The notes under the pieces were generated by a model that was not told where the DNA came from, ran no database searches, and saw only the letters and a list, made by a program, of their open reading frames with translations. From contig DASUNM010000005.1 of the NCBI GenBank assembly GCA_036277115.1, positions 1-64,000 on the forward strand: DNA of 64,000 bases, in the 5' to 3' direction. The position numbers and the translations under genes were made by a program. Within the stretch, counting starts at the first letter, position 1, and every line of letters begins with the position of its first letter. Of the stretch, positions 7,732 to 59,625 are shown piece after piece. This DNA comes from Pyrinomonadaceae bacterium (lineage in GTDB: Bacteria > Acidobacteriota > Blastocatellia > Pyrinomonadales > Pyrinomonadaceae).

Positions 7732-7899
7732 GAATTTGTGATATTAGCAGGACGGGCAAGATAATGCGGAAGAAGGAGTATTATCAAGCCCAGTCCGGAT
7801 GTTGTTAGTCTCAGGTTGCTCAGCAATGTAACTGCAAAGGTCGCAGCGCCTGGTCAACTCTGACATTAGTTGTAAATTCTTTGAGGCATACGACAGTCG

Positions 7900-8301: not shown

Positions 8302-8349
8302 GTTTTAATCTTAAGCGCCTCGTCGGACGTCTTCACGAGAGGATGCGTT

Positions 8350-8688: not shown

Positions 8689-8703
8689 TCGGTCGAACTC
8701 GCC

Positions 8704-40187: not shown

Positions 40188-40204
40188 ACGTGAGCAGTGG
40201 CGGC

Positions 40205-40275
40205 TGATCGCGCCTAATAAAGTCGTTACGTAACGAATAAAGACCTTACTGAAACAATAAAGTTCTTACCGACGA
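40205..40275 (+). repeat. Left element end: TGATCGC terminus and three TnsB-like boxes
   Basis: TGATCGCGC at 40205, then boxes AATAAAGTCGTTAC (40216), AATAAAGACCTTAC (40236) and AATAAAGTTCTTAC (40256), each exactly 20 bp apart. The nine-base spacing between the terminal TG and the first box equals that of Tn7 from memory. Confidence 0.8.
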
Positions 40276-40332
40276 ATCCAACAAGCCCGCGGTACTTCTG
40301 GTGTCGAGGTGTCACTCGAGCGAGTTCCGTAA

Positions 40333-41097
40333 GTGGATTTCTTTCTAGGTTTTCCTTCGGACGATCCAGCACGACACCAATCGCATTCACGGGAGGGCTT
40401 GGCCTTTTCTATTTTCTCCCTCGTTCTTCTCGCCTATACTGCGACGGTGAACTGGAGCTACATAATCATCGGCGGCGCGGGACTCCAAATCGCACTGCTA
40501 ACACTGGTGTACACCCTCACTGCGAGACGAAGCGATGGGGCAATCAAAGCACTAGAGGCCCATAATAAATGGTTGAAGGAACAACTCGACCAAGCAAACA
40601 ATAATGCGCCTGACGTCTTGGTGGAACGACAAAAGAAACGAATCGAACAATACAAGGAAGAATTAGAGCAACTATCGAATGATTACGAAGCGAATAAGGC
40701 TCTAATCGAGGTGAAAGTAGCGGAACTTGAACGAGCTGAAGAACTACTCGGAGAACTTGAATATTATAAAGACCAATTTGCTTGCCCTACCTGTGGTGCT
40801 GAACTGACTACGCTAGCCGGTGAAGAGGAAGAAGTGAGGGCTTATGCCTGTGGTAGCACTAGTAGCCCAAATGGAGAATACCCCTGCCCTTACGACCCTG
40901 AATTCCCAAGGCTAGAAGACTACAACCGAGAAGTACGACAACTAGCCTCCGGCAAGTTCTTCTGTAACCCCAAAGCTAAAAACAAAAATGCGTACAAACT
41001 GACTCTACAGCCTCAGGGTGGCGAAACAGAAGAAGAAGCTAAACAGAAAATCGCAAACAATTATCAACGCCTTCTTCCTAAGAATCTTAGAGGGTGA
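40333..41097 (+). CDS. Membrane protein with coiled coil and zinc ribbon, hypothetical
   Basis: Not recognised. The 254-residue protein has two close hydrophobic helices (residues 25-40 FSIFSLVLLAYTAT and 43-62 YIIIGGAGLQIALLTLVYTL), a long charged coiled coil (residues 70-145, rich in Glu/Lys/Asn) and a four-cysteine zinc-ribbon-like part (CPTCG near residue 153, CGSTSS and CPYD near 176-187). It is the first gene inside the dense element end, where Tn7 would have tnsA, but nothing like a TnsA endonuclease is visible. The start is GTG at 40333. The codon use is A+T-rich compared with the host. Confidence 0.62.
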   Translation: MDFFLGFPSDDPARHQSHSREGLAFSIFSLVLLAYTATVNWSYIIIGGAGLQIALLTLVYTLTARRSDGAIKALEAHNKWLKEQLDQANNNAPDVLVERQKKRIEQYKEELEQLSNDYEANKALIEVKVAELERAEELLGELEYYKDQFACPTCGAELTTLAGEEEEVRAYACGSTSSPNGEYPCPYDPEFPRLEDYNREVRQLASGKFFCNPKAKNKNAYKLTLQPQGGETEEEAKQKIANNYQRLLPKNLRG

Positions 41098-41411
41098 AAC
41101 AAAACGTCTCACGGACGTGCACTACACGGAGATAACACGTGGAACACCCCTTCACTCTCCTCCCTGCCCGTCGCTACGAAGTCTGGCAAAGAAACAAATC
41201 CTCAAAACCAATAAAAAACGCCAGCGAAGGTGTAGGTATGAAGTTTGGAAGGTTGACCGCCCTTTGTCTTTCGACAAGCCGTCACTGGCACACCGAATTA
41301 TTCATTCGCGACTGATGATTCTATTGGCTTCATTACTTGGGCTCGCGCCTCTGTCCTATAGAAGCTCCGCTAGGAAACGGAAACGCAACGTCCGAACCGT
41401 CACTGCTCCAA
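41098..41411. other. Spacer with no supported gene
   Basis: The gap between two genes that converge. A 161-residue + frame overlaps both neighbours here, but its composition is not protein-like and I do not call it. Confidence 0.4.
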
Positions 41412-42365
41412 TCATTTTTGCAATTCTATTTGCTTTACCATGGAATGAAGCATGTCAAGAAGCAAAAAGAGTCGTGTCGAAAGCTCAACTGTTCCATAGT
41501 TGAGCGACAGTCCGTGAGCGACCGCATGTCTCCGTAACCGTTCAGATTTGTGATGTGATGAGGGATCATAAGCATCATAGAGTTCGTCGAGTTTTTTCAA
41601 GTTGTGGTAATTCACAATCGCATTAACTTCTTCCACAGTGGCTGTGTTCTCGGTAAGCAATTCCGTTAAGACTTTGAATCGACTACTGAAGACACCCCGA
41701 ACCCGATAAAAACTGCGGTGCGTAAAAGCATATTTGGTTGCCACAAAATCGCGGATGAGACCTTCAACCTGGCCAATCAAAACCGAGACGCTTAAGTTAA
41801 ATCTTGCATTTTGATGAGCCCACAACGCTTCATCAAAGAATTGCTCTCTGAGAGTGAATGGAGCAGCGTTCCACGACTCAACGATTTGACCTAGTTTTTT
41901 CGCCTTTTCGTGGTTAAAGAACTTAACAATTATCTTAGTAATCTCTTCGGCCGTTACAGAATCCTGTTTCTGTACGATATGTTCGTAAAAAGTTATCGGT
42001 AGCCCAGCCACGAGCCACCAATCGTTCTTGTCCATTATGGGCGAGACTCTGGCTAGGCAAAGTGCAATCTGATCTAGTCGTTCAAGACGTTCTATAGCGG
42101 AAGCTACGAGTGAAGTGCTCAACCCTAGTGTGAATGTGTGGAGTTGTAGGTTCGTTATAGAAATATCCCAAGAAAGCTTGTCCAAGTCATAACTGAGTTT
42201 CTGCACGTTACGTTTGTATTGCTCCTCCCACTTGGCAAGATCAGCGTCTGACGTAGCAAGTCTCTCAACCAGTGATTCTCTAAAAACCCGGTTGCGGTAC
42301 CGTTTGCTGAAACGCGCAAGGAAACTCAGATACTTCTTTCGTGCCAGCTTCAAAACGCTTTTCAT
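41412..42365 (-). CDS. HEPN-motif protein, candidate RNase
   Basis: Unrecognised family, but the C-terminus has a HEPN-type catalytic motif R-x4-H: HKSERLRRHAVAHGLSLN, with R-HAVA-H, after a helical region (FDEALWAHQNARFNLSVSVL, IGQVEGLIRDFVATKYAFTH). HEPN proteins of this shape are usually RNA-cleaving toxins or defence effectors; that is family knowledge, and the role here is inferred. The N-terminal 150 residues are helical and basic with no name. The open frame starts at TTG 42398; I use the ATG at 42365. No obvious antitoxin partner is encoded beside it. The codon use is A+T-rich. It lies in the left part of the proposed element, where defence cargo is common. Confidence 0.55.
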   Translation of the reverse strand: MKSVLKLARKKYLSFLARFSKRYRNRVFRESLVERLATSDADLAKWEEQYKRNVQKLSYDLDKLSWDISITNLQLHTFTLGLSTSLVASAIERLERLDQIALCLARVSPIMDKNDWWLVAGLPITFYEHIVQKQDSVTAEEITKIIVKFFNHEKAKKLGQIVESWNAAPFTLREQFFDEALWAHQNARFNLSVSVLIGQVEGLIRDFVATKYAFTHRSFYRVRGVFSSRFKVLTELLTENTATVEEVNAIVNYHNLKKLDELYDAYDPSSHHKSERLRRHAVAHGLSLNYGTVELSTRLFLLLDMLHSMVKQIELQK

Positions 42366-42398
42366 TGCAATTAGATCGTCAATACCGTCTCCTGCCAA

Positions 42399-43041
42399 AA
42401 GTAGGCTCTGGCTTCTTTGTTCAATTCGGTACGTCGTAAATCAAAGCAATCCAACTAAGCCGACCGTCGCTGTGTTCCAAAGATATACCACCCCTCCCCG
42501 TGATCATCGCTAAATACCGTCGCATCTTCACGTCACCGAAGGGACTGCTTACCTTCAATTCTTAGATCAGGCCACTCGACCATAATCAAACCGTATTTGG
42601 TTCTAGGCGCCGAGTACAGGTGCGAGTAAGGAACAGCAGGGCTGCGGGTAAAGGATACTTTGAGTTTGTTGGCAACCTACTCCGTTTGTTTTTAGGGCAG
42701 AAATTTAAGAGAAAACGCGGCACGGAGCATGCCTAGTGATCATCCACCGTCATCACTGGGCGGCGACCAGCCGGTCTTTATGTCCGATCCAAGCGCTGGC
42801 TCCAGGAGAGTCCACTCCTTTATTCCGACGTGTTAAACGGATCCGAATCAGGCGGCCTCAGCTTGTTAGAGATGCAGTGTCGGCAAAAGGGCGTTATCAT
42901 TATTGGCGTTAGCTGCTGTTATTTAATGCGCTGAATCTGCTCCTCCGTGTTGGGACCTCCTCTTTCAGAGCGCGTTCCGGCAAGGTCATGACTCACTGAG
43001 GCTATGTAGCCGAGATAATCTATCTTGGAGTCGTAGATGAA
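42399..43041. other. 643-base gap without a supported gene
   Basis: No ORF here is convincing on either strand. The sequence is mixed in composition, with scattered short palindromes only. I see no tRNA, CRISPR or recognisable riboswitch. Confidence 0.5.
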
Positions 43042-44247
43042 TCACCTGCACTCAGGGTCCTGATGGTCAATGCCGATCTCAACCATCCGCTTCATCTTGT
43101 CGTCTTGTTCGTTCTTGTCTGAGTTGACGCCGCCCGTAGCATAGCTAAATGAGACGTGATCGCTGCCCAGCCGTTTTATTAGGTAAACCACGGCAACATA
43201 GGCTCTGACAGCACCCAATTCGCAGTTGTCATCGACCCGCGGCCAGACTCTTGTCCCCCCTTCCCGTGAAGTGAAGTCCAAGTAAACCGGCTGGGTCCCG
43301 CTGAGCCTGTCGTTGCGGCATCCGCGATAACGAACCTGTTCCAGAGAGAGCCCGGGTGCGTCCCTGTCTCCGATGCCGGTTTGATCCGCCCGCAAGGCTA
43401 TCCCCTTCACCTTATAATCATCGGTACGGCCGAGGACTTCCACCCGCAGGTCGAATCGCTTCTTTCCGCGACGCAAATCCAGCAGCGCTTTCGCAACCTC
43501 CCCCAGCAGGCCCTGCAAGCCCTCATTGACCTTATACTCCCCTCGCTCGAACCCGGCAGCCTTCTCGCGCTTGAGCCATTTATAAAGTTCGAAAGTTTCA
43601 AAGCATGGGTCGGCCTTCTTCGTCTGGTCAAGCTCTTTTATGTATGGTTCGATCCGGTCATGCATCAACAAGTCGAACGCTTCATCGAGGCTTATCCGTT
43701 TCTCGGTCGTTCCTTGAGTCTCGGCCTGTTTCTGAATAACTAGATTAAGCTCTCTGTAGATAAGACGCGTAACTTCATCGCACGTAGACATACGAATAGG
43801 AATGTAGACGGTCTTAGAGTAGCGTTGCTCAGACCCGAGGCCGGGCCTTCTTCTCCAATGCCCGTCCTGCTCGTCCCTTAAAGAAACGGTCAACCGATCT
43901 GTGTCCTGTTCATTGAGCGTCTTGAGGAATACCGGGAGGTACTCCGGACTTTTGAGGGATAGGACTATTTCGTGCTTCGCGTAGAAATACTTCAGCCCGG
44001 TCGGATTTGTGAATTCTATATCCTGGAAGTGAGACATCACGCTTTCGTGGCCCGCACGAATATCCACCACCTTCATCCGTGCCCGCTCGTTCAGGCGGAC
44101 CCCAAGTTTCAACTGTTCTGGGGTAACCGGGTCGGTGGTCGTCGATGGAGCAGGCGCACAACCCGCCACCGAGATCACAAGAGTAATGAGGATGAAGGTG
44201 CGGGCGGCTGAGGTTTTATGAAGGATGACCTTAGAGTCTAACGGCAT
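43042..44247 (-). CDS. Lipoprotein with OmpA-like C-terminal domain
   Basis: The N-terminus has a lipoprotein signal with lipobox VAGC (Cys 29) after ARTFILITLVIS. The middle is a charged helical region of about 200 residues. The C-terminal part looks like a divergent OmpA/MotB peptidoglycan-binding domain: DLRVEVLGRTDDYKV near residue 270, then NCELGAVRAYVAVVYLIKRL near residue 340 and DDKMKRMVEIGIDHQ at the end, matching the usual N-xxLS-xxRA-x-V and NRRVEI positions. If correct, it ties an outer-membrane lipid anchor to the cell wall. Last gene of the leftward cargo run. Confidence in the OmpA-like part is moderate. Confidence 0.6.
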   Translation of the reverse strand: MPLDSKVILHKTSAARTFILITLVISVAGCAPAPSTTTDPVTPEQLKLGVRLNERARMKVVDIRAGHESVMSHFQDIEFTNPTGLKYFYAKHEIVLSLKSPEYLPVFLKTLNEQDTDRLTVSLRDEQDGHWRRRPGLGSEQRYSKTVYIPIRMSTCDEVTRLIYRELNLVIQKQAETQGTTEKRISLDEAFDLLMHDRIEPYIKELDQTKKADPCFETFELYKWLKREKAAGFERGEYKVNEGLQGLLGEVAKALLDLRRGKKRFDLRVEVLGRTDDYKVKGIALRADQTGIGDRDAPGLSLEQVRYRGCRNDRLSGTQPVYLDFTSREGGTRVWPRVDDNCELGAVRAYVAVVYLIKRLGSDHVSFSYATGGVNSDKNEQDDKMKRMVEIGIDHQDPECR

Positions 44248-44271
44248 TGCTTTATGTCCGCGTGTCTTCGG

Positions 44272-44511
44272 TTAAGGGTAGAAGAACAAATACAGCATGA
44301 GATAGATTAAGGCGTAACCCATGACCCCGACAACGGTGAGGCCACCCAAGAAGGCTAATGCCTTTAAGCCCGAAGTAATGGACCAGAGTCGAGCTGCCGG
44401 GGTGTCAACCTCTGATTCCATTGCTCTGGTGGGTTCGGGTTCCGAAGATCTTGCCGCGCTCCGTAGCGGCACTCGGCCGCGACTTCTCGGTGCCGGAGCC
44501 GGTTGTGACAT
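44272..44511 (-). CDS. Small membrane ORF, 79 aa
   Basis: A Pro/Arg-rich N-terminus followed by a strongly hydrophobic C-terminus (ALAFLGGLTVVGVMGYALIY, LMLYLFFYP). It overlaps the next ORF in another frame by about 105 bases. The pair could be two overlapping genes or one gene with a frameshift. The start is ATG at 44511 with AGGA too close to be a normal ribosome site. Not recognised. Confidence 0.35.
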   Translation of the reverse strand: MSQPAPAPRSRGRVPLRSAARSSEPEPTRAMESEVDTPAARLWSITSGLKALAFLGGLTVVGVMGYALIYLMLYLFFYP

Positions 44512-44665
44512 TCCTCGAGGTGTTCATGTCCTCCCGCGCGTTGCGATCTACTTCCAATTGGCGCTCTACCTTCTTCACCTCCTTCATGTATGGCAGTAAT
44601 AATGTGAAGAAACCAGTGATTAAGATTGCTTCAATGGCGCTAAGAGAGAAAAATGCTGCGGCCAC
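44405..44665 (-). CDS. Small membrane ORF, continuing an interrupted frame
   Basis: Begins with a GTG at 44665 and a hydrophobic helix (FFSLSAIEAILITGFFTLLL) followed by a charged segment. The same frame is open for 27 further codons upstream, back to the TAG stop of the 72-residue ORF at 44747, encoding another hydrophobic stretch (LRSFIPHLIGVAAITVAAA). The two may be one gene split by a TAG. Not recognised. Confidence 0.35.
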   Translation of the reverse strand: MAAAFFSLSAIEAILITGFFTLLLPYMKEVKKVERQLEVDRNAREDMNTSRNVTTGSGTEKSRPSAATERGKIFGTRTHQSNGIRG

Positions 44666-44746
44666 AGTGATGGCAGCAACACCAATAAGGTGAGGGATGA
44701 AACTCCGAAGTGCCAGAATATATTTCTTGATCAGTATCGACTCTAC

Positions 44747-44965
44747 CTAGTAAGGGCTTTTAATCGTGCCGATCATCGTCAGCAACTGATTGTTGAAAGA
44801 CAAATAATTAGCGTCGTCGCTAGAAAAACTAGCGCCCGCGAGTAGAACCCGGGCAGCCTTGGCCGTCTGGTCTAGTTTGTGTGCGGTGACGATAACCTCG
44901 TCCCGGAGCGAGAAAAGCGATGTCGGTTTGCCGTCCCAAACACAGATGTCGTTGCACAGCGACAT
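44747..44965 (-). CDS. Small soluble ORF ending in a TAG in frame with the next ORF
   Basis: A 72-residue ORF (ATG at 44965) with a soluble composition and no known family (LRDEVIVTAHKLDQTAKAAR). Its TAG stop is in frame with the 44405-44665 ORF, whose open region starts immediately after it. It may be the N-terminal part of a broken gene. Confidence 0.35.
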   Translation of the reverse strand: MSLCNDICVWDGKPTSLFSLRDEVIVTAHKLDQTAKAARVLLAGASFSSDDANYLSFNNQLLTMIGTIKSPY

Positions 44966-45027
44966 TTGTCTCCGTCGCGCGACGAAGACTTGAGTCGTCA
45001 GATCCTAGTCAGCGCCGCGGGTCTGAT

Positions 45028-45966
45028 CTAGAAGGGTTTCCATATCCGCACTTTCACGACAAGCGCCTTATCCTTTGCCTTGAAATACATTGGCGGTGCG
45101 CAACCCATGTATTGATACGCTTGCATGTAACCGCTGAACGCAAGTTCCTTCTCGTTTGAACACTGAACCATATATATCGCCTTGCTATTAGAACTGGTTT
45201 CAAAGAACCCATTCCCATATTTCGCTGGGTCATCTACTCCCCCTGTCCAGCACTCCTTGCGCAAGTTAATTGATACCCACTTGTTGGGCTGCGTAAGCAA
45301 AATTGGCTGACTATTTCCGCACGAGACTCTTTCTGGTAATTTAGGTTTTGGATCTCTTTTGAATGATAGTACTACAGCGGGTTGGCGGGTTTCCGGTGTA
45401 CTTTCCTTGATTGATTTATCAAGTTTAATAGCACCCAATACTACCAGTCCTCCAATTGCCACTATTAAGATCATTTTAACTACCAGAGAAGATAAAGGGT
45501 GGACTCCAGCGCTTGTCTTTGACGGTACGGTAGAGTACTCATCCTTTGATGATGAGTCCCTCGAATACACTCTAGGTTCCGATTTATGATGGGTGCCACT
45601 GTGTACCTTGCGTGTGTTACCAAGCCAGTCTTCTTCCCTCCGTGTGTCGCCAACTTTGTTGTCTGAAGTATCGTAATGACTCTGTACTTGATTACCTAAC
45701 CAATCGGCTTCATTCTTGCTATACCCTACCCTTTCTTCATCACTCCCATAATGTACAGCCCTTTCCCTGCCAAGCCAGTCAGAGCCCTTTCTTGTCTCAC
45801 CTTTTTTCTCACCAGCGGAATCGTAGTGTTCCTGCTTTGAGCGTCCACGCCAATCTTCTGTGAACTTGGTTTCTCCAGCCTTCTCTCCATTAGCATCATA
45901 ATGAACCTCTTTTTCCCGACCGAGCCAATCGGTTTCTTTTTTTGTGTAGCCCGACTTGTCACTCAT
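45028..45966 (-). CDS. Membrane protein with five DWLG/HYD repeats
   Basis: Unrecognised 312-residue protein. The first 125 residues are five tandem copies of a 25-residue unit with consensus G-x-T-K-x-x-x-DWLGR-x-x-x-x-HYD-x-x-G-x-K, for example ETDWLGREKEVHYDANGEKA and EADWLGNQVQSHYDTSDNKV. Then come a polar linker (EPRVYSRDSSSKDEYS), one transmembrane helix (VVKMILIVAIGGLVVLGAI) and a C-terminal domain with four cysteines (residues 220-312, CGNS, CWTGG, CSNE, CAPPM). The repeats would be cytoplasmic and the Cys domain outside. Similar Trp-Leu-Gly/His-Tyr-Asp repeats occur in bacterial small-repeat proteins, but I cannot name a family. The gene is A+T-rich. Confidence 0.68.
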   Translation of the reverse strand: MSDKSGYTKKETDWLGREKEVHYDANGEKAGETKFTEDWRGRSKQEHYDSAGEKKGETRKGSDWLGRERAVHYGSDEERVGYSKNEADWLGNQVQSHYDTSDNKVGDTRREEDWLGNTRKVHSGTHHKSEPRVYSRDSSSKDEYSTVPSKTSAGVHPLSSLVVKMILIVAIGGLVVLGAIKLDKSIKESTPETRQPAVVLSFKRDPKPKLPERVSCGNSQPILLTQPNKWVSINLRKECWTGGVDDPAKYGNGFFETSSNSKAIYMVQCSNEKELAFSGYMQAYQYMGCAPPMYFKAKDKALVVKVRIWKPF

Positions 45967-46035
45967 GACGATCCTTCAACAAGGGAAACCAATGGATTGT
46001 TCGCAGCTTACCCGTCAGCAAAGTACCCCTCTGGT

Positions 46036-46359: not shown

Positions 46360-46408
46360 CTAGACAATGGCTAGGCGGTCTTCAGCTGTTCAACCGAAAT
46401 GAAGTTGT

Positions 46409-48730
46409 CTATCCTTGCTCTTTAAAGTTCGCTCGCACATTTTGTAATGCCTTCAACAGCAGTTCTCGGTCTTCAATTGCCAAAGCACCGAATAGTTGAG
46501 CCAACCAAACCCGATAAGGCGACAGTTTTTCGTTCTGATTAATGAAGTGTTGCGTGCCAGCAAAGCTCCACTCCACTTTGAAGCCGGGAGGCTGCCGCGC
46601 TACTTCTGCAATTAGTTCATCAACCTTGGGTCCAATTTGGCCGGCTTTGCTTTCGGCTAGCAGACTGGCAATCTCGATTGCCCGTAGTGCTGTTTTGGTT
46701 CTTACAGGAAGGTCAGGATGAGCAAGCAAGGCATTAATGCGATCTCTACAATCAGCAAAACGTCCGATGCTGAAATGCGCTTCTGCAAAGTCTGCTTGAA
46801 CCAGGATGTCCAATGGATGATTTGCCAGCCAATTCTGGTTTAAAAGGAAAGCCTTATCGAAGTCGAAGAGTACCTCGTGATAGAGCCGGGACGCTTCGCC
46901 AAAAACCGCTTTATTGCCTGTATCAACCGTTAGTACATTCGCGAATGCCTCCGCAGCAGCAGACGCCTCACCCAGGAGAAGATGCGCCAACCCAAGATTA
47001 ATCAGCACCGCCGCCCACTGATGAGGATCCTCTCGTGTAATTACTTTAAGCGCGGTGTGATAAGCCGTTAACGCTTCGTTCAGATACTTGATCCTCTCCT
47101 CCCCGATTGCCCGCTGTCCCAATCTCATCAATCCAATTCCCAGATTGGTCTGCAACACAGTCCACTGCAGCGGTAACTGCGCCCGCGTGGTGATTTCGAG
47201 CGCACCGCGATAAGCCGCGACGGCTTCGTTCAGATAGCTTGTGCTCTCCAACCCGATGGCTCCCTCGCCCAATCTCGATAACGCGTTACCCATATTGAGT
47301 TGCGTTTCAGCCCAATCCTGCGGTGCCTGCGCGCGGGTTCTAATCTCCAGCGAAGCTCGGAACGCTGCAATCGCTTCGCCCAGATACGTGCCGCGTTCTG
47401 CCTCGTTTACTCGAACAGCTAACATCGCCAACGCACTACCCAAATTGTTCTGCACTGTTGCCCACACTTGCGGCGACGCTTCGCGCCTGATCACTTCAAG
47501 CGCGGCACGATAAGCCGCAATCGCTTCCGTCAGATGCGTAATGCTTGCTGACCCGCTCGCCCGCTCCCCCAATCTTAAGAACGCAACGCCCAGATCGTTC
47601 TGCGTTACGGCCCAGTCCTGCGCTAGCTGTTTGCGGGTTCTAATCTCAAGCGACGCTCTAAGAACTGCAACTGCTTCATCAAGGTACTTGATGCTCTCCA
47701 CCCCGCTTACCCGCTCCCCTAATCTCACCAACGCGCTGCCAAGATTGTTTTGCGACGTAGCCCAATCCTGAGGTAACTGCTCGCGCGTATGGAATGTCGC
47801 GCTCTGCCGGAATTCAGCCACGGCCTCCACCAGAAATCTTCGACCCTCTTCGCCGCCTACTCTTTGCCCTAATTCTACTTTTGCGTTCCCAATCAGAAAT
47901 CTTGTTGCGGCCCATTCCGCTTTGAGCTCTTCTTTGGGCAGCTCCTTTGCCTCGAAGCGTTGCGCGAGTTCATTGTACGTAATCAATGCCTCTCTGAATT
48001 TGTATTGTGCGTAGTAGGAATTTCCTGCGAGCTGAGATCGCCGGATGACTTTAAGGCTGACTTCAAGCGTCTTTTTTTTTGCTTGTGCCAACTCTGCCAG
48101 AGCGGTCTTGTATGATTCGGTAGCCAGGAGCGCTGCTTCTTCATAGTTCTTTTGCCAATACTGCTTAAGAGCCCGCTCCTCTTTATCATCTGAGTCTTTG
48201 ATTGTGCCCCATTGTTCGGCGGCGTCACGGAACTGTTCCAACGTGAAGCCATACTCTTTTGCGTAGTCCCGCAGGAATGCGTATTCATCAATATTCCTCC
48301 TGAGGTTTCCTACTTCCGTGCGCAGTTTGACTCTTTCAGCCGTCCATTGATCTATCACTTGGCTGAGTCGCCTTGGCGATAAAGCGAGGGGAGAACCTTT
48401 CGGAACGATGACGACTCGCAATGGTTCAAAGTTGCGCTCAGTGCTTTGCGTAATGCAGTTACCGAGCATCGGCTGAAAGATTACCCAATTCGATTTGACA
48501 ACTTTGATGCGTGTAGCCTGCCCTGGCTGTGCTGCTGATGGGAAACCAATCTTGAAATGTCCTTTGCTATCCGTTACTGCTGCCTGTCCTCCAGCCGCAA
48601 CAATCCTCACTCCGACGACAGCTCTATCTTTATCATCAAAGACTTGTCCCTCCAGTTTGGCTTGCTGACCAAGCGCCGTCGCTGAAAGGCAGGAGGTGAA
48701 GAGTACAACGAGGAAGGTTTGGAACTTCAT
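46409..48730 (-). CDS. Exported transthyretin/TPR paralog A (5 repeats)
   Basis: First of four tandem paralogs. Signal peptide (MKFQTFLVVLFTSCLSATAL), a CarboxypepD_reg-like domain to about residue 110 (KLEGQVFDDKDRAVVGVRIV; TDSKGHFKIGFP), a coiled-coil and helix region to about 240, five full TPR-like repeats of 50 residues with a diagnostic TRxQxPxxWAxxQNNLG core, a terminal half repeat, and a C-terminal helical domain with INALLAHPDLPVRTKTALRA and WSFAGTQHFINQNEKLSPYR. Starts at ATG 48730 behind GAGGTCAAAA. The C-terminus stops earlier than paralog B because of base changes. No enzyme motif is visible; a secreted or periplasmic protein-binding role is inferred. Confidence 0.85.
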   Translation of the reverse strand: MKFQTFLVVLFTSCLSATALGQQAKLEGQVFDDKDRAVVGVRIVAAGGQAAVTDSKGHFKIGFPSAAQPGQATRIKVVKSNWVIFQPMLGNCITQSTERNFEPLRVVIVPKGSPLALSPRRLSQVIDQWTAERVKLRTEVGNLRRNIDEYAFLRDYAKEYGFTLEQFRDAAEQWGTIKDSDDKEERALKQYWQKNYEEAALLATESYKTALAELAQAKKKTLEVSLKVIRRSQLAGNSYYAQYKFREALITYNELAQRFEAKELPKEELKAEWAATRFLIGNAKVELGQRVGGEEGRRFLVEAVAEFRQSATFHTREQLPQDWATSQNNLGSALVRLGERVSGVESIKYLDEAVAVLRASLEIRTRKQLAQDWAVTQNDLGVAFLRLGERASGSASITHLTEAIAAYRAALEVIRREASPQVWATVQNNLGSALAMLAVRVNEAERGTYLGEAIAAFRASLEIRTRAQAPQDWAETQLNMGNALSRLGEGAIGLESTSYLNEAVAAYRGALEITTRAQLPLQWTVLQTNLGIGLMRLGQRAIGEERIKYLNEALTAYHTALKVITREDPHQWAAVLINLGLAHLLLGEASAAAEAFANVLTVDTGNKAVFGEASRLYHEVLFDFDKAFLLNQNWLANHPLDILVQADFAEAHFSIGRFADCRDRINALLAHPDLPVRTKTALRAIEIASLLAESKAGQIGPKVDELIAEVARQPPGFKVEWSFAGTQHFINQNEKLSPYRVWLAQLFGALAIEDRELLLKALQNVRANFKEQG

Positions 48731-48844
48731 TTTTGACCTCGTGAGACTGAGTATAACGATCGATCCTCTTCATCACGCCTAGCGCATCACCGTTCGGTAC
48801 CTAAACTGCTAGTTGGAGGATTGGTTAAACATTTGACGCCTTCG

Positions 48845-51694: not shown

Positions 51695-51761
51695 TGTGAC
51701 CTCGCGAGGAAAGTATGAGCGATCGATCTCTTTCGGTCATTAAATGCTACTGCAGTTGGCG

Positions 51762-54617
51762 CTAAGAGCCAACGGGCGATTTTGAACCATGCATTCCCAC
51801 CGTCTGTCTATGACTATTCTCAATGAAGGCGATTTTCATTTTCGCTCTTACACTCTGCAAGTCTCTAAGCATTACGTCGCGTGGTTTGTTGTCGAGAGCA
51901 TCAAACAATTGTTTCAACCAAAACCGATAAGGAGCCAGCTTCTCGTTTTGATCGATAAAGTGTCTTGTGCCTTCAAAGTTCCATGTGACTTGGAACTCAG
52001 GCGGTTGACGGGCGACCTCCGCGATGAGCGTGTCAAGTTTGGTTGACACCTGATTAGTTCGTTGAAGGGCTAGAATGCTGGCAATCTCAAATGCGCGCAG
52101 AGCTGTCGCGATGCTGGCAGGGACTTCCGGCCGCGCCAAGAGAGCATTTATGCGTTGCTCGGCTTCGATGAAACGTCCGGTGGTAAAGCATCCCTCGGCA
52201 AAATTCGCCTGAGAGTCAATGTCGTTCTTTCGTTTTACCCGCCACTGTTTCGAAGTAAACGCCCGCTCGAAATCGAATAGCTTATCGTGGTAGACCGCGC
52301 CGCCGAGGCGATGCATCTCTTCGTCATCCGGGAACACCTGCAAGACCTCCGCGATTGATTCACCCGCGCTGCGCCAGTCTTCCAGCAAAACGTATATTGA
52401 CACTAGATGATTCTGCACCTCCGCCCACTTCTCCGGTAAATGCGTTCGAGTAAAAATACCGAGCGCAGCGCGAAGCGTTACTATGGCTTCGTTCCAATAT
52501 TTCGTCCTCTCTGCCCCTTCCGCACGTTCGCCCAAAACGCCGAGCAACAGTCCCAGAGATGCCTGTTTGTAAGCCCAATTCTGCGGCGACTCTGCACGCG
52601 TCAGGACCTCCAGAGCGGCGCGATACTTCGAGGCCGCTCCGTTTAGGAACGCCACTCCCGCCGCCCCTTCCGTTTTCAAACCCAGGAAAAACAACAGATC
52701 TGCTAGGTTAGCTTGCGCCGTAGCCCAGTCCTTTGGAAACTCTGCGCGGGTGTGTACCTCCAGCGCTGCTCGATGCGCTGCTGCCGCCTCGTCCAGATAC
52801 TTAAGTCCCTCCGGCCCTTCAGTCTTCTTGGCTAACCCGCCCAATGTAACCCCTAAGGCGTTTTGGGTCATGGCCCATTGCCGCGGCGAGTGGGCACGGG
52901 TTCTTACTTCCAGCGTGGCACGCAACCCCGCCGCTGATTCGTTCAAATACTCAAACCCCTTCGGACCGTCCGTCAACTTGCCCATTTCGAACAGCACATC
53001 GCTTAGGTTGTACTGCGTTTGCGCCCAGTCCTGGGGCCACTGCTCGCGGGTTCTGACTGCCAACGCTCCACGGTATGCCACCACTGCCTCGTTCAGAAAC
53101 TTCAGCCGCTCCGCACCTTCCTTCTGGTCGCCCAATCGATTCAGCACAGTACCAAGATTGTTCTGCGCCGCAGACCATTCTTGCGGCGACTCGACGCGCG
53201 TGAAAATCTTCAGCGCGGCGTGTAACGCGGCGACGGCTTCATCTAAATACTTGACACTCTCGGCGCCTGCTACCCGTTCGCTCAAGTCAACCAACGTATT
53301 GGCGAGATTGCCCTGCGCGCCGGCCCATTCCTGTGGCGCCCGTGCGCGGATATCACCATCCAGGAGGGCGCGATGTCTGTCGGCGGACTCAGTTAAATAC
53401 TTGATGCTCTCGGCCCCTTCGATCTGTCTGCCTAATAGGCGCAACACCGCACCCAAACTATTCTGCGTTGCTGCCCACTCCAGCGGCCAACGCGCGCGCG
53501 TGTAAATCTCCAGCGTTTCGCGAAACACGGCGGCGGCGTCCTTCAGGTGCGCGGCCCCGTCCACGCCGTCGAATCGTCGGCCCAACGCTATCAACGTATG
53601 CCCACGGTTGTTCTGCATCAAGGCCCAGTGCGGAGGCGATTGTGCGCGCGTGTAGTAGGTCTCGGCCTCTTTGAAGGCGGCCAGAGACTCTAACAGCAGT
53701 CGAGGCCCTGCGTCGCCGGCGACTATTTCGCTCAATGCGCTTTTGGTTCTTCCAATCGCCAGCTTTAGATCGGCCCAGTCGTTCGAAAACTCTTCCTTAC
53801 GGATGTCTTTAGTCGAGAAAAGCGCATCGAGCCTAGAGAACGACTCCATTGCCATGCCAAAGTTGGACTGCTCATAGAAAGCATTACCTTCGAGAGTGTA
53901 AACGCCGATGACTGTGCGGGCACGCTCATCCTGTTCTTTGTTAGCAGCCTTCAACTGCTCGATGGAAGGAGAACCAATCTTCGCGGTCAGTTCCGTTACT
54001 TTCTCTAAGTTTCCCAACCAGTATTCCTTACGAGCAAGTTCCAGCGTGTCGTCAGACTCTTTGGATTGTGCCCATCGATCCAATGCAGCCTTCAGCCTGC
54101 CGTTGGAAAGACCATATTCCTCTGCGTATTCTCGTAGGAAGGCGTATTTCTCGCGCTCAATTCTCGCTTTAAGCAACTCGTCTTTTGTTTCTTTTATTAT
54201 CGTATCCCGCTTCGCAACCTGCTTTTGCATTTCGTTTACGAATTCACTCAACCTTTTGGGCCCGTAAGAGAGCGGCGAATTCTTTGGAACGATGATCACG
54301 TCGAGCGGCTCAGAATTGAGTGTCACGCTTTTCGTATCACAGTGACCGAACATGGGGTTGAAGACCACCCAGCCTGCCCTCGCGACCCTGATGCGCGCGG
54401 CCTGTCCGGGACGAATGTTGTCGGGCAGATGAATGATGAAGTGGCCTTTGCTATCGGTCCTACCAGCCTGCCCGCCAGGTGTCACGACGATTCGCACGGA
54501 CGGAACTCGCCTTTCCTTTTGGTTATGAACATGTCCTTCGATCTTGGCTTGTTGCCCGAGGGCAGACACGGCTAGGCTAAAGACAAAAAGCGTAAGCATG
54601 CTTAGGTGTAGTTTCAT
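51762..54617 (-). CDS. Exported transthyretin/TPR paralog C (8 repeats)
   Basis: Signal peptide (MKLHLSMLTLFVFSLAVSAL), transthyretin-like domain with GHVHNQKERRVPSVRIVV, coiled coil (VAKRDTIIKETKDELLKARI), eight full repeats with more sequence drift than in B (TRAEFPKDWATAQANLADLL), terminal repeat and the shared C-terminal module (FEGTRHFIDQNEKLAPYRFW). The C-terminal tail differs (FIENSHRQTVGMHGSKSP) and reappears, degenerate, at the relic 57960-58121. Start ATG at 54617. It resembles paralog D more closely than A or B at the N-terminus. Confidence 0.86.
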   Translation of the reverse strand: MKLHLSMLTLFVFSLAVSALGQQAKIEGHVHNQKERRVPSVRIVVTPGGQAGRTDSKGHFIIHLPDNIRPGQAARIRVARAGWVVFNPMFGHCDTKSVTLNSEPLDVIIVPKNSPLSYGPKRLSEFVNEMQKQVAKRDTIIKETKDELLKARIEREKYAFLREYAEEYGLSNGRLKAALDRWAQSKESDDTLELARKEYWLGNLEKVTELTAKIGSPSIEQLKAANKEQDERARTVIGVYTLEGNAFYEQSNFGMAMESFSRLDALFSTKDIRKEEFSNDWADLKLAIGRTKSALSEIVAGDAGPRLLLESLAAFKEAETYYTRAQSPPHWALMQNNRGHTLIALGRRFDGVDGAAHLKDAAAVFRETLEIYTRARWPLEWAATQNSLGAVLRLLGRQIEGAESIKYLTESADRHRALLDGDIRARAPQEWAGAQGNLANTLVDLSERVAGAESVKYLDEAVAALHAALKIFTRVESPQEWSAAQNNLGTVLNRLGDQKEGAERLKFLNEAVVAYRGALAVRTREQWPQDWAQTQYNLSDVLFEMGKLTDGPKGFEYLNESAAGLRATLEVRTRAHSPRQWAMTQNALGVTLGGLAKKTEGPEGLKYLDEAAAAHRAALEVHTRAEFPKDWATAQANLADLLFFLGLKTEGAAGVAFLNGAASKYRAALEVLTRAESPQNWAYKQASLGLLLGVLGERAEGAERTKYWNEAIVTLRAALGIFTRTHLPEKWAEVQNHLVSIYVLLEDWRSAGESIAEVLQVFPDDEEMHRLGGAVYHDKLFDFERAFTSKQWRVKRKNDIDSQANFAEGCFTTGRFIEAEQRINALLARPEVPASIATALRAFEIASILALQRTNQVSTKLDTLIAEVARQPPEFQVTWNFEGTRHFIDQNEKLAPYRFWLKQLFDALDNKPRDVMLRDLQSVRAKMKIAFIENSHRQTVGMHGSKSPVGS

Positions 54618-54648
54618 CGCTTCATTTTCGCCGACCTAGCCGGTGGCC

Positions 54649-57600
54649 TCACCGTTTGAACCTGGTTCGCACTTCCTTAAGTGCGTTCAGCATTCTGTCG
54701 CGGTCTTCGCTTCCCATGGCATCGAGTAGCCCTCCAAGCCAGTCGCGATGAGGTTTCAGCTGCTCGCTGTGGTCTATGAAGTGTCTTGTGCCCTTGAAAC
54801 TCCATTCGACCTTGAAAGTGGTGGGTTGCCGTGAGACTTCGGCGATCAGCACCTCGAGTTTGCTTGGAACCTGCCTTGCTCGATTGACGGCTGCCAGATT
54901 GGCAATTTCTAGTGCACGCAATGCTGCCCTGGTACCAGCAGAAAGGGTTGAATTAGTCAGGAGGGCCGTAATGCGTAACAGGCTTTCCTCAAACTGGGCC
55001 GTTGTGAAATGCGTTTCGGCAAAATCTGCTTGGGCCGAAATATCATCCTGATGCCTTGCCAGCCAAGATTGATTCAAGGCGAACGCTTCTCGAAAGTTAA
55101 ACAGCATCTCGTGCTGGAGCGTGGCAGCTCTTTGATAAGCCTCCACATCATCGGGGTATATCTTTAGTACATTGGTATAAGCTTGGCTCGCGCGCGTCCA
55201 GTCCTTTAGCAAAAGATAAGTTGCGGCCAAGTTGTTCTGGGTCATCGCCCAATCCTGTTGCAGGTACGCCTGCGAGTAGGTCTCCAGCGCGGCGCGATAA
55301 GCGATTTCCGCACCCTTAAGATACTGAATACTCTCCGCGCCTTCCGACCGCGCGCCTAACTCGCGCAACACATTACCAAGGTTGTTCTGCGTCCCCGCCC
55401 ACCGCTGCGGCAATTGCTCACGCGTGAAGACCTCGAGCGCGCCGCGATAGGCGACTTCCGCATTCTTCAAGTGTGCGACCCCCTTGGAACCTTCCACCCG
55501 TTCGCCCAAGTCGCTCAACACTACGCCAAGGTTGTTCTGCACCATCGCCCAGTCCTGTGGCACCTGCGCGCGTGTCCTGACTTCCAGCGCGGCGCGAAAT
55601 GCCTGCGTGGCCTCATCCAGATATTTAAGGCTCTCCGCGCCTGCCGATCTCACCCCTAACTCACGCAACACAGCGCCTAAGCCGTTCTGCGTATCCGCCC
55701 AATCCTGTGGCACCTGCGAATGCTTATAGACCTCGAGCGCGGCACGATAGGCGATTTCCGAATTCTTCAAGTAGGTAATGCCCTCCACGCCTGTCGACCG
55801 CATGCCTAACCCCCTCAACGTAGTGCCCAGGTTGTGCTGCGCAATCGCCCACCGCTGTGGCACTTGCTCACGCGTGTAGACCTCCAACGCGGCGCGATAA
55901 GCGGCCTCCGCTTCGTGTAGATACCTAAGGCTCTCCTCAGCCCCCACTCGCTCACCCAAGTCACGCAGTACAATTCCCAGGTTGTTCTGCGTCATCGCCC
56001 AGTCCTGTGGCAACTGCGCGCGATTGTAGACTTCTAGCGCAGCACGGTTTGCGGCTTCCGCTCCTTTCAAGTATCTGATGCTCTCGACACCCTCCACTCT
56101 CACGCCTAACTGATTCAGCACAGTCCCTAGGTTGTTCTGCGTCGCCGCCCATTTCTGTGGCAATTCCTTCCGCGTGGAGACCTCCAATACGGCGCGAAAA
56201 ATAACTTCCGCCTCCCTCAGGTATTGGATGCCTTCCGCACTCTCCACCCGCACGCCTAACTTACGTAGTACATTGCCCAAGTTGCTCTGCGTCGCCGCCC
56301 AAATCTGTGGCGATTGCTCACGCGTGAACACCTCCAGCGCGGCGCGATAGATGACTTCCGCCTCCCTCAGGTATTGGATGCCTTCCGCACTCTCCACTCG
56401 CTCACCGAAGACGCTCAACGCACTGCCTAGGTTGTTCTGTGTCGTCGCCCAATCTTGTGGCGATTGCTCGCGTGTAAAGACCTCCAGCGCGGCGCGAAAT
56501 GCGAGCACCGTCTCGCGCAAATGGTTTACGCCTTCCGCCCGCAGGCCCAAATCACTCAGCACAATTCCCAGGTTGTTCTGCGTTATTGCCCAATCTTGTG
56601 GCGAGTGCGCGCGTGTCCTGACCTCCAACGCAGCGCGGTGGGCGATTTCCGCCTCCCTCAAGTACCGAATGCTCTCGACGCCCTCGGTTCGCCCAGCTAA
56701 ATCACGCAGCACAATCCCCAGGTTGTTCTGCGTCGCCGCCCAATCCTTAGGCGATTGCGGCCGCGTGAAGATCTTTAACGCACCGCGGTAAGCTGCTTCC
56801 GCCTCCCTCAAGTACCCAATGGCTTCCGCACCCTCTGCTCGCTCACCTAGTTCAATCAGCGCGTTCCCCAAGCTGATTTGCGTAGTCGCCCAACCATGCG
56901 GTGAACGTTCACGATTGTAGAATGTCTCTGCTTGCCGATAAGCAGCCAAAGCCTCCAGCAACAACCGTGGGCCCTCCGCACCTTTTACTCTGGCGCCTAA
57001 TTCACGCTTAGCAGTCCCGATAGACAGATTTAATAATGTCCATTCCTGTGTAAAATCCTCTTTGGAGAGTTGTCTGTTTTCGAAAAGCTGTTCGATTTTC
57101 ATGAGGGACGCGAGTGCTTCTCGGAATTTGAACTGCTCATAGAAAGCACGTCCTTCAAGCGCATATATGCTTATGACGGTGCGACCACTTTCAAGCCGTT
57201 GCCTGTTTTTTTGTTTCAAGACTTCGACGGCAAAAGGCGCGGCTTCCCGGGTAAGTTCAGTCACCCTTTCGAGATTTCCCAGCCAATATTCTTTGCGTGC
57301 TCTCTCTAGTTTGTCATCAGACTCTCGGGTTTGCGCCCATATATCCAAGGCAGCTTTTAACTTGTCGGACGGAATGCCATACTCTTTTGTATATTCTTGT
57401 AGGAAGGCGTACTTCTCCCGCTCACGCGTGGCTTTATCTGCACTATCTCTCAGCGTGTTTATTGTTTTCCCTTGATTAGTAATTTGCTTTTGTAGTTCAT
57501 CTACAAATTCACTCAACCTTCTTGGCCCATAAGAGAGCGGTGATCCCTTGGGAACGATGACCACCCGTAGGGCCTCGAAATTACGCCCCGCACTTTTCGT

Positions 57601-57882
57601 CTCGCACTTGCCGAACATCGGGTTGAAAATGACCCAGTTCGACTTTGCAACTCTGATTTGTGCTGCCTGTCCGGGCTGAACGTTGTCAGGCAGGCTGATA
57701 CTAAAATGGCCTTTACTGTCAGTCGTATCAGCCTGCCCGCCGGGCGTGACGACGATTCGCACAGACGCTAGTCGCCGGTCCCTGTGGTCATAAACATGTC
57801 CTTCAATCTTGGCTTGTTGCCCGAATGCGGTTACTGCCAGGCTGAGAATGAAAAGGGGAAGTATGGTGAGGCGTGGTTTCAT
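54649..57882 (-). CDS. Exported transthyretin/TPR paralog D (11 repeats)
   Basis: The longest copy (1077 residues). Signal peptide (MKPRLTILPLFILSLAVTAF), transthyretin-like domain with TDSKGHFSISLPDNVQPGQA, coiled coil, eleven full repeats and a terminal one. One repeat (number 3) is three residues short. Adjacent repeats such as FTREQSPQDWATTQNNLGSA and FTREQSPQIWAATQSNLGNV are nearly identical, so repeat number is probably changing by slippage or recombination. The C-terminal module ends KEVRTRFKR. The upstream gene in this orientation is the anchored transthyretin protein, past the relic. Confidence 0.87.
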   Translation of the reverse strand: MKPRLTILPLFILSLAVTAFGQQAKIEGHVYDHRDRRLASVRIVVTPGGQADTTDSKGHFSISLPDNVQPGQAAQIRVAKSNWVIFNPMFGKCETKSAGRNFEALRVVIVPKGSPLSYGPRRLSEFVDELQKQITNQGKTINTLRDSADKATREREKYAFLQEYTKEYGIPSDKLKAALDIWAQTRESDDKLERARKEYWLGNLERVTELTREAAPFAVEVLKQKNRQRLESGRTVISIYALEGRAFYEQFKFREALASLMKIEQLFENRQLSKEDFTQEWTLLNLSIGTAKRELGARVKGAEGPRLLLEALAAYRQAETFYNRERSPHGWATTQISLGNALIELGERAEGAEAIGYLREAEAAYRGALKIFTRPQSPKDWAATQNNLGIVLRDLAGRTEGVESIRYLREAEIAHRAALEVRTRAHSPQDWAITQNNLGIVLSDLGLRAEGVNHLRETVLAFRAALEVFTREQSPQDWATTQNNLGSALSVFGERVESAEGIQYLREAEVIYRAALEVFTREQSPQIWAATQSNLGNVLRKLGVRVESAEGIQYLREAEVIFRAVLEVSTRKELPQKWAATQNNLGTVLNQLGVRVEGVESIRYLKGAEAANRAALEVYNRAQLPQDWAMTQNNLGIVLRDLGERVGAEESLRYLHEAEAAYRAALEVYTREQVPQRWAIAQHNLGTTLRGLGMRSTGVEGITYLKNSEIAYRAALEVYKHSQVPQDWADTQNGLGAVLRELGVRSAGAESLKYLDEATQAFRAALEVRTRAQVPQDWAMVQNNLGVVLSDLGERVEGSKGVAHLKNAEVAYRGALEVFTREQLPQRWAGTQNNLGNVLRELGARSEGAESIQYLKGAEIAYRAALETYSQAYLQQDWAMTQNNLAATYLLLKDWTRASQAYTNVLKIYPDDVEAYQRAATLQHEMLFNFREAFALNQSWLARHQDDISAQADFAETHFTTAQFEESLLRITALLTNSTLSAGTRAALRALEIANLAAVNRARQVPSKLEVLIAEVSRQPTTFKVEWSFKGTRHFIDHSEQLKPHRDWLGGLLDAMGSEDRDRMLNALKEVRTRFKR

Positions 57883-57959
57883 GTCTTATCCTCGTGAGCT
57901 TGCAAAGCAGGGATTTATCAGGATGTCATTGTCGCCGAACCAGCCGGGCGGCATCAGTG

Positions 57960-58121
57960 TATTGAGCGATCAATCTCATTCGGTCATTAAATGGATACTG
58001 CAGCTGTAGGAGCCACGTGGGATTTTGAGCCATGCCATTCACCGTCAGTCGATAACTATTCTCAATGACGGTCGCTGATAAGAAAAGAATGAGGCGCAAT
58101 GAGGGAGGTGGTGAACTTCAT
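57960..58121 (-). pseudogene. Relic joining a signal-peptide start to a paralog C tail
   Basis: The ATG at 58121 overlaps the stop of the upstream gene (ATGA). It opens MKFTTSLIAPHSF, like the start of paralogs A and B, and after about 20 codons meets DNA that matches the 3' end and downstream spacer of paralog C (51717-51838). In another frame this reads VIENSYRLTVNGM, matching the C tail IENSHRQTVGM. Everything between is deleted. Confidence 0.55.
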
Positions 58122-58759
58122 TTTTTTCGCAGCTTGATTATCGGAGGTGCCTTACCTAGTACTACATCTTCCGTGTAAGGGTTAGGCTGATAGCCGACTA
58201 GGACTACCCGGACGCGTACTCCTTCTCCATACTTCTTGGGAATCTCGCTTAGATTGAAGACTCCATCGGTGGAAGTGTGAACGGGCGCCATTCCAGGAAA
58301 GTCATCGAGCGTGACCAGCGCGCCCTGAAGCGGCTGGTCGTGGCTGTCCAGCACTGTGCCCGACAGATTCGCTTTGGTGTCTGATACGGGACTTAGCCGA
58401 ATATCCTCGATTTCTCTTTTTGCAGACACTCGCAGTCGCCTGTCAAAAGGCACATATCCGTCTGCTTCAACTACAATCTTGATCTCATCAAGTTCCTGAG
58501 ACAGATCAAATTTGAATACGCCCTCTGAATCAGTGTAAAGAACCGGAGGCAGCCCCTTTCCCTCCAGACTTACTTTGGCGCCCCGAATTCGCGTTGTACC
58601 CTTAGTATCGGAAACCTTTCCGATAAATGATTCATTCTTGTTCCCTTGATTAAACGTGAGTGGTATGAGCTTAACGCCCGCTACTACCAGTCCGCCTAAC
58701 ACCGGTATGAGAGCAACGATAACGGGAGTCCTCTTATACCAAGGAGTCGATAATCTCAT
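58118..58759 (-). CDS. Membrane-anchored protein with two transthyretin-like domains
   Basis: The ATG at 58759 follows GGAGGTCAAAA, close to the leader of paralog A. The 213-residue protein has an N-terminal membrane anchor (VIVALIPVLGGLVVAGVKLI) and two CarboxypepD_reg-like domains: residues 45-115 (FIGKVSDTKGTTRIRGAKVS, LYTDSEGVFKFDL) and 125-210 (LSGTVLDSHDQPLQGALVTL, HTSTDGVFNLSEI). These beta-sandwich domains often mediate cell-envelope binding. First gene of the leftward cargo operon; its stop overlaps the relic start. Function unknown. Confidence 0.7.
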   Translation of the reverse strand: MRLSTPWYKRTPVIVALIPVLGGLVVAGVKLIPLTFNQGNKNESFIGKVSDTKGTTRIRGAKVSLEGKGLPPVLYTDSEGVFKFDLSQELDEIKIVVEADGYVPFDRRLRVSAKREIEDIRLSPVSDTKANLSGTVLDSHDQPLQGALVTLDDFPGMAPVHTSTDGVFNLSEIPKKYGEGVRVRVVLVGYQPNPYTEDVVLGKAPPIIKLRKK

Positions 58760-59466
58760 TTTTGACCTCCGAATTAGATTCTTACAGTCATAGAGAGGCG
58801 CCTGTTGGCGCCAAGTCGTCGTGCGAACGCATTGCGCAGCCGCAGCTGGATTTAGAGCATGTATGAGCATCCTCCGATAACCGTCTGAAGTTGCTACCTA
58901 TCGGCGCCCGGCTACCAATTTGCTCGCGGACGGATTGGGTCTAATCCGAGAAAACTGGGCCGCTGCGAGGTTGCGGGGAAAGCTAATTCTACACCCAGCA
59001 GGGGAAGTATGGGAATAGTGTCTTACTCCTCGAGAAAGCCTCCATATGCGAAGGACGTCGCTTAACCAAGAGAGTCCGTACAACGCAGTTTGCTTCGTCT
59101 TTTTGTTTCTGATTAAAAGATCGCATGCTCATGTTATCGCGTTGTTTACAACCAGTCTTGCGGCTCGTGCATTGCGAATCAACCGGCGGTTTCGCGCAAC
59201 GGTCGGCAGCGTATTTCCAAGCTTAGAGGAGACTAATCAATAATCACGCATCAATACGTGTGAAATGTTGGTTCAGATTCGATAACGAAATGTCTATGGC
59301 ATCCTGCACTCCGTGACCTCCCTTACGATGAAAGAGACTTCGTTTGCTATTCCTGAACAAAGCGGAGGCCCGCCCTTCGCCTTTTTTCACGGCCGCGCAT
59401 GTTTGTCGTCGCTTTAGACCGCGGCGAAGAACCGGATTATGGCCGATTTCGAATTAGGTAAGAAAG
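58760..59466. other. Right flank of cargo, no supported gene
   Basis: About 700 bases between the first cargo gene and the right element end. Several short ORFs exist on both strands, but none has a start signal, domain or compositional support. Possible promoter region for the leftward cargo operon. Confidence 0.45.
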
Positions 59467-59613
59467 GTAAGGACTTTAACGGTTCGTCGCGGCTGACTCG
59501 GGCTCTTAAATGGGTACCGAAGTAACGACTTTATTACTTTCTAAACCCAGACAACTCATCCCCATCGTAAGTATTTCTTGATTGGCTCGTAAGGACTATA
59601 TTTGTGGCGATCA
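59467..59613 (-). repeat. Right element end: TGATCGC terminus and spread TnsB-like boxes
   Basis: Read inward on the minus strand: TGATCGCCA then CAAATATAGTCCTTAC (ends 59589), then TAATAAAGTCGTTAC (59536-59522, identical over 15 bases to the left-end box), then GTTAAAGTCCTTAC (59480-59467). Spacings are 67 and 55 bases. The end is open-spaced, unlike the abutting boxes of the left end. Confidence 0.8.
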
Positions 59614-59625
59614 GTGGCGACGGCG

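What the first reader, a model, noticed from the sequence alone, without database searches (positions are those of the whole stretch)
40205..59613. A 19.4-kb element with Tn7-like ends but no transposase genes
The two ends are inverted repeats with the plan of a Tn7-type transposon: 5'-TGATCGC, nine bases to the first box, then boxes of AATAAAG-NCNTTAC. The left end has three abutting boxes with an exact 20-bp period (40216, 40236, 40256). The right end has three spaced boxes (59589-59602, 59522-59536, 59467-59480) in the opposite orientation. One box is identical over 15 bases at both ends (TAATAAAGTCGTTAC), and the outer 26 bases match at 21 positions. From memory this matches Tn7 ends (TGTGGGCGG then ACAATAAAGTC). 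Nothing inside resembles tnsA, tnsB, tnsC, tnsD or tnsE, so this would be a cargo-only element mobilised in trans, or one that lost its transposition genes.
Basis: partly seen in the sequence, partly recalled or inferred. Interest (0 to 1): 0.92.

Follow-up and report, generated by a model that had tools for sequence, protein, structure and literature searches.

The report
Transposase-less Tn7-like islands beside pilC
A 19.4-kb block of DNA in a Blastocatellia bacterium has the end sequences of a Tn7-type jumping element and sits just after the pilC gene, where related species carry other such elements, but no transposase gene was detected in it, so it is likely moved by another element's enzymes.

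Summary
In detail: the window has six boxes of the Tn7 transposase-site type (12 of 14 matches or more), all at the two ends, three abutting at one end and three spaced at the other. The genome belongs to Blastocatellia (Acidobacteriota). Relatives settle what it is. Of seven genomes of the genus, four have the pilC-epimerase junction empty; three have Tn7-like elements exactly there: the window (19.4 kb), a 7.3-kb element with the same ends but unrelated cargo (short Argonaute/SIR2 and TIR genes), and a 43.7-kb element with tnsA-tnsB-tnsC-tnsD. Their box positions agree within one base (11/31/51 and 11/78/132-133). The last two have perfect 5-bp target duplications; the window's matches at 4 of 5. 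Three more genera have Tn7-like ends 13-18 bp after pilC; one is a 1.6-kb element with a perfect duplication and no detectable tns gene. So the 3' end of pilC is a Tn7-like attachment site that transposase-less elements use repeatedly. Searches of the window's genome found no TnsA, TnsB, TnsC or TnsD. Movement in trans by another element's TnsABCD is the best-supported mechanism but is inferred; loss of tns genes in place is the main rival. New variant of a known kind.

The parts
38958..40187 (+). pilC (T2SSF family), host gene whose 3' end marks the attachment site
   Evidence: Pfam T2SSF E 1.9e-66; a match in 119 of 119 family genomes, some of them only a distant paralogue
40200..40204 (+). 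left candidate target-site copy GCGGC; 12 bp lie between the pilC stop and it
   Evidence: sequence; matches the right copy at 4 of 5
40205..40270 (+). pilC-proximal end (Tn7-R-like): TGATCGC terminus and three abutting boxes at 20-bp period (40216, 40236, 40256)
   Evidence: first 78 bp 90% identical to the element in G117
40333..41097 (+). cargo ORF, 254 aa: hydrophobic stretch, coiled coil, CPTCG motif (by eye); function unknown
41412..42398 (-). cargo ORF, 328 aa, likely HEPN-type protein (R290-x4-H295 invariant in 12 of 12 aligned)
43042..44247 (-). cargo ORF, 401 aa, lipoprotein-like by eye, no family
45028..45966 (-). cargo ORF, 312 aa, repeats and a hydrophobic stretch by eye, no family
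46409..57882 (-). four paralogous cargo genes (773, 949, 951, 1077 aa): signal-peptide-like start and TPR arrays
   Evidence: TPR hits; 42-63% identity to each other; N termini read
58118..58870 (-). cargo ORF, 250 aa, carboxypeptidase regulatory-like domains
   Evidence: Pfam PF13620, PF13715
59467..59613 (-). distal end (Tn7-L-like): TGATCGC terminus and spaced boxes at 59589, 59522, 59467 (67 and 55 apart)
59614..59618 (+). right candidate target-site copy GTGGC
59626..60579 (-). NAD-dependent epimerase, host gene on the other side of the junction
   Evidence: adjacent to pilC in four empty relatives

Best explanation
The 19.4-kb segment has Tn7-type ends and no detectable transposase gene, lies 17 bp after the stop codon of pilC at a spot where several related species carry Tn7-like elements, and was likely put there by TnsA, TnsB, TnsC and TnsD proteins supplied in trans by a helper element. 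Shown by calls: the ends and their box geometry, the empty site in relatives, the shared site, the failure to detect tns genes in this element and this genome, and a tnsABCD element with the same geometry at the same site in a sister species. Inferred: that TnsB binds the boxes; that TnsD reads the 3' end of pilC and places the insertion just after the stop codon with the abutting-box end towards the gene, as Tn7 does at glmS (recalled); that a TnsB specific for the TTAC-type box moved this copy; and that cargo is exchanged between elements by this route. The helper with TTAC-type boxes was not found.
For: Box positions agree within one base in three genus members: 11/31/51 at the pilC end, 11/78/132-133 at the other. 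Same junction empty in 4 of 7 genus genomes, G114, G115, G116, G118, with 39-74 bp between the pilC and epimerase matches. G117: 7,336-bp element, same ends, duplication CATAA/CATAA, no tns homology, cargo short Argonaute with SIR2 partner plus three TIR-type genes; in blastn its DNA matches the window's element only over the first 78 bp. G113: 43,723-bp element, duplication TCATC/TCATC, with TnsA, TnsB, TnsC and TnsD by Pfam. G101, another genus: 1,589-bp element at the same spot, TCCTG/TCCTG, one 242-aa ORF of unknown nature, no tns homology. 6 of 96 family genomes with pilC-downstream DNA carry such an array 13-21 bp after the stop, against a background of 8 in 5,552 stretches of 200 bp once 8 hits that are Tn7-like ends are taken out. 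In G030 a TnsD homologue lies beside the pilC-side end. G000 has no hit to TniQ (16 of 119 family genomes do), TnsA_N (20 of 119 do), G113 TnsB or G113 TnsD; its two TniB-family hits lie in 795- and 895-aa frames and resemble the hits found in 13 of 14 control genomes. Elements of different size and cargo with intact duplications and no tns argue for movement without genes of their own.
Against: No helper with TTAC-type boxes was found: the abutting array (up to 3 mismatches) occurs in 4 of 162 class genomes and none of the four was seen with tns genes of that box type. The window's target duplication matches at only 4 of 5 (chance about 1.6%, by hand), so this copy may be old and immobile. 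Its termini are TGA...TCA, where G113, G101, G042 and G030 have TGT. All transposase-less copies could have lost tns after arriving. The Mu-transpos_C search of the own genome rang in no control genome and proves nothing. G117 has one TniQ hit elsewhere in its genome, under the cut-off (25.5 bits), not followed up.
Confidence: 0.62

Rival explanations
1. Decayed autonomous element: a complete Tn7-like transposon inserted after pilC and later lost tnsABCD by deletion, leaving ends and cargo.
For: A full tnsABCD element occupies this site in G113 and a tnsD lies beside the pilC-side end in G030. The window's target duplication is imperfect, so the insertion looks old.
Against: No tns fragment with E under 0.02 in the element. 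Two other elements at the site, G117 and G101, also lack tns yet keep perfect duplications, so separate clean losses would be needed.
Confidence: 0.28
2. Cargo swap: homologous recombination through the conserved ends or flanking genes replaced the contents of an element already at the site, so the 19.4 kb never transposed as a unit.
For: Window and G117 share only about 78 bp at one end in blastn; G113 carries, about 1 kb inside its own end, a relic TTAC-type end followed by the Argonaute/SIR2 genes of G117 (72.6% identical over 4.2 kb).
Against: Both ends of the window match each other in box type, as expected of a unit.
Confidence: 0.08
3. Chance repeats around an ordinary genomic island, not a Tn7-like element.
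For: None of weight.
Against: Six boxes against 0.63 expected, the same geometry in three genomes and perfect 5-bp duplications in relatives, tnsABCD with matching ends at the same site.
Confidence: 0.02

Closest known systems
Tn7 and Tn7-like transposons (TnsABC plus TnsD/TniQ)
   Same: Inverted arrays of about 20-bp boxes, abutting at one end and spaced at the other; outermost box 10-11 bp from the terminus (Benler et al. report a median 12-bp offset, PMC8649781, passages); 5-bp duplication in relatives (5 bp is characteristic, PMC11406308, passages); insertion just after a conserved gene.
   Different: No tns genes detected; TGA terminus; attachment gene pilC instead of glmS, tRNA, parE, comM, yciA, IMPDH or SRP-RNA, the sites named in the passages I read.
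The tnsABCD element of G113 at the same pilC site
   Same: Same gene junction, same 17-bp distance from the stop, same box positions at both ends.
   Different: Box second half GGAAAA instead of TTAC; TGT termini; carries tnsABCD; 43.7 kb.
   Same: Same box type and site, no tns genes detected.
   Different: Cargo is short Argonaute/SIR2 and TIR genes, 7.3 kb; perfect duplication.
Prokaryotic MITEs and other non-autonomous transposons
   Same: Ends without transposase, moved in trans if at all (recalled).
   Different: 19.4 kb of genes; multi-box ends; site-specific.

Membership tests
Tn7-like transposon | Inverted arrays of about 20-bp transposase boxes at both ends, outermost near the terminus | tested here: met
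   11/31/51 and 11/78/133
Tn7-like transposon | tnsB (with tnsC, usually tnsD) inside the element | tested here: not met
   so not filed as a complete Tn7-like transposon, only as a transposase-less derivative with such ends
Tn7-like transposon | 5-bp target-site duplication | tested here: inconclusive
   GCGGC/GTGGC, 4 of 5, in the window; perfect in G117, G113, G101
Tn7-like transposon | Insertion at a near-fixed distance after a conserved gene | tested here: met
   17 bp after pilC; 13-21 bp in the 6 of 96 genomes with an array
Tn7 sensu stricto | TGT...ACA termini | tested here: not met
   TGATCGC at both ends
Tn7 sensu stricto | attTn7 after glmS | tested here: not met
   Flanking gene is pilC
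Tn7-like ends | TnsB binds the boxes | not testable with these tools
   Needs gel shift or footprint
MITE | Short (hundreds of bp), no genes, terminal inverted repeats | tested here: not met
   19,409 bp with genes
HEPN superfamily (328-aa cargo protein) | HEPN fold with R-x4-6-H motif (motif recalled) | tested here: inconclusive

The most novel reading that the evidence does not exclude
Blastocatellia carry a lineage of Tn7 satellites: gene islands with TnsB-type ends and no transposase that borrow TnsABCD from helper elements sharing the pilC docking site, and so shuttle interchangeable cargo, including Argonaute, TIR and HEPN-type defence genes, through one chromosomal port. Such islands are invisible to surveys that start from tnsB.
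Probability: 0.4. Interest if true: 0.75.

Novelty: new variant of a known kind. Interest (0 to 1): 0.62.

Why it matters
A large survey of Tn7-like cargo began with tnsB and scanned outwards (PMC8649781, passages), so transposase-less elements are missed by design. Three such elements at one site, with different cargo and size, suggest that a share of bacterial defence and accessory islands may be Tn7 passengers. The finding also names an attachment gene that I did not find in the papers searched (3' end of pilC), with a tnsABCD element there, which makes both TnsD targeting and trans-mobilisation directly testable.

Tried and rejected
Only one match was used: L099, whose contig length and position are those of the G117 contig and which gave the name Blastocatellia UBA11740; the other 117 were not examined. 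The terminal pattern found three single sites with 2 mismatches in G041, G088 and G107; G088's was scanned for boxes and not pursued. No exact match to the terminal pattern in viral contigs and none to the left end in plasmids. No distal end was found for G042's pilC-side array within about 58 kb, and G030's contig ends inside its element; both count only as pilC-side arrays. The AAAGT-period scan found no abutting array at the tns loci of G107:C5, G042:C7 (two), G109:C29 or G113:C10. Chance boxes were rejected by simulation. Confinement to one genus was rejected (G101, G042, G030). In the fold search the HEPN rows stand only a little above unrelated helical proteins, and the motif region of the model is under pLDDT 55, so the HEPN reading leans on the invariant motif.

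Survey drops: of 119 family genomes, 96 entered the pilC-downstream count, two of them with under 150 bases; 23 were left out because only a distant pilC-like gene was found, the contig ended in or near the gene, or I did not fetch the stretch. The order search returned the same 119 genomes as the family search. PADLOC was not run on the window ORFs 40333-41097 and 41018-41503.

Literature, listings only unless said: 20 of 24 listed; 15 of 72 listed; pilC in none of the 15; 2; 15 of 18; 15 of 229; 9 of 10; 8 of 40. Passages read: PMC10293859, PMC8649781, PMC6360697, PMC11406308. I recall an earlier report of multiple Tn7 insertions forming islands at attTn7 (Parks and Peters) but did not see it.

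Full report
WHAT IS THERE. The ends at 40205 and 59613 are real and Tn7-like. All six boxes of at least 12 of 14 matches in the 64-kb window lie at the two ends, in inverted orientation; simulations give 0.63 on average, at most 3 in 60 runs. Measured from each terminus, boxes (with one flanking base) begin at 11, 31, 51 at the pilC side and 11, 78, 133 at the other. In the ORFs between them nothing like tnsABCD was recognised.

WHERE IT IS. The window starts contig C5 of a 4.85-Mb genome. A genome of the same genus, G117, has a contig of the length of DNNE01000085.1, titled Blastocatellia bacterium UBA11740 in the genome collection, with the same array at the matching place. The host is therefore taken as Blastocatellia. 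The element lies between pilC (T2SSF) and an epimerase gene.

EMPTY AND FILLED SITES. In the genus 7 genomes are held. G114, G115, G116 and G118 have pilC and the epimerase side by side, 39-74 bp between matches. G000 (window), G117 and G113 have insertions of 19,409, 7,336 and 43,723 bp there. G117 has the same box type (its distal terminus reads TGATCGT) and a perfect CATAA duplication. G113 has a different box second half (GGAAAA), TGT termini, a perfect TCATC duplication, and genes identified by Pfam as TnsA (PF08722, PF08721), TnsB (Mu-transpos_C on the 624 aa tested, 23.2 bits, cut-off 21.7), TnsC (AAA_22, TniB) and TnsD (PF15978, TniQ). The window's candidate duplication is GCGGC/GTGGC. 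The box positions are the same in all three within one base, which ties the transposase-less elements to the tnsABCD element.

A SHARED DOCKING SITE. I looked downstream of pilC in 96 of 119 family genomes (two with under 150 bases): 6 carry a 20-bp-period array whose terminus lies 13-21 bp after the stop codon: G113 17, G000 17, G117 21, G101 18, G042 13, G030 14; G041 has a single box (distances counted by hand). Background in the same detector was 16 hits in 5,552 stretches, of which 8 are Tn7-like ends. The box second halves differ between genera, so several TnsB lineages probably use the same site. G101's element is 1,589 bp with TCCTG/TCCTG and no tns homology. In G030 a TnsD homologue lies beside the pilC-side end.

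IS THERE A HELPER IN THIS GENOME? None found: TniQ 0, TnsA_N 0, G113 TnsB 0, G113 TnsD 0. TniB gives two hits in long frames (795 and 895 aa), of the kind that also ring in 13 of 14 control genomes. TTAC-type abutting arrays occur in 4 of 162 class genomes: G000, G117, a relic in G113, and G107; none was seen with tns genes of that box type in the stretches read.

HISTORY AT THE SITE. Within G113's element, about 1 kb from its pilC-side end, sits a decayed TTAC-type array followed by the Argonaute/SIR2 genes of G117 (72.6% identical DNA over 4.2 kb). An earlier TTAC-type passenger was therefore probably absorbed into a later element at the same port; this is inference from the order of parts.

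HOW IT WORKS. By analogy with Tn7 (established knowledge), TnsD would bind the end of pilC and recruit TnsC, and TnsA/TnsB bound to the box arrays would cut and join the element just after the stop codon, abutting-box end towards pilC. The window's element would supply only ends and cargo. That step, movement in trans, is inferred. The chief rival is loss of tns after insertion.

NOVELTY. The ends and chemistry are of a known kind. Not met in the papers searched: pilC as attachment gene, and transposase-less elements sharing end geometry and site with a tnsABCD element.

Noticed in passing
L131:8965-17666 (G107:C100): Another transposase-less candidate, 8,702 bp, TTAC-type array 12 bp after the stop of a different ORF (7807-8952); the distal end shows one box; flanks share only CCGG, no clean 5-bp duplication.
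   Followed up: partly
L130:8520-8690 (G041:C48): An L-type end (boxes 67 bp apart, TGTTCGC terminus) directly followed by an R-type array at 21-bp period: looks like two elements in tandem; a TnsD C-terminal fragment lies about 9 kb away.
   Followed up: partly
L178:1-7000 (G043:C135): Compact element of about 7 kb holding little but tnsD-C-B-A between Tn7-like ends; L-type boxes 68 and 56 bp apart.
   Followed up: partly
L173:3480-8490 (G113:C14): Relic TTAC-type end plus Argonaute/SIR2 genes inside the tnsABCD element.
   Followed up: partly
L309:1290-1370 (G042:C7): pilC-side Tn7-like array with no matching distal end found in about 58 kb.
   Followed up: partly
G113:C10:180859-182699: A second TniQ-bearing locus (two TniQ genes) in the sister genome, ends not identified.
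   Followed up: no
window 46409-57882: Four tandem paralogues of TPR proteins with signal-peptide-like starts, 42-63% identical to each other; function unknown.
   Followed up: partly
L201, L207, L208 downstream of pilC: Other repeated short motifs just after pilC in G028, G040, G039, not of the AAAG-box type; may be ends of other mobile elements.
   Followed up: no
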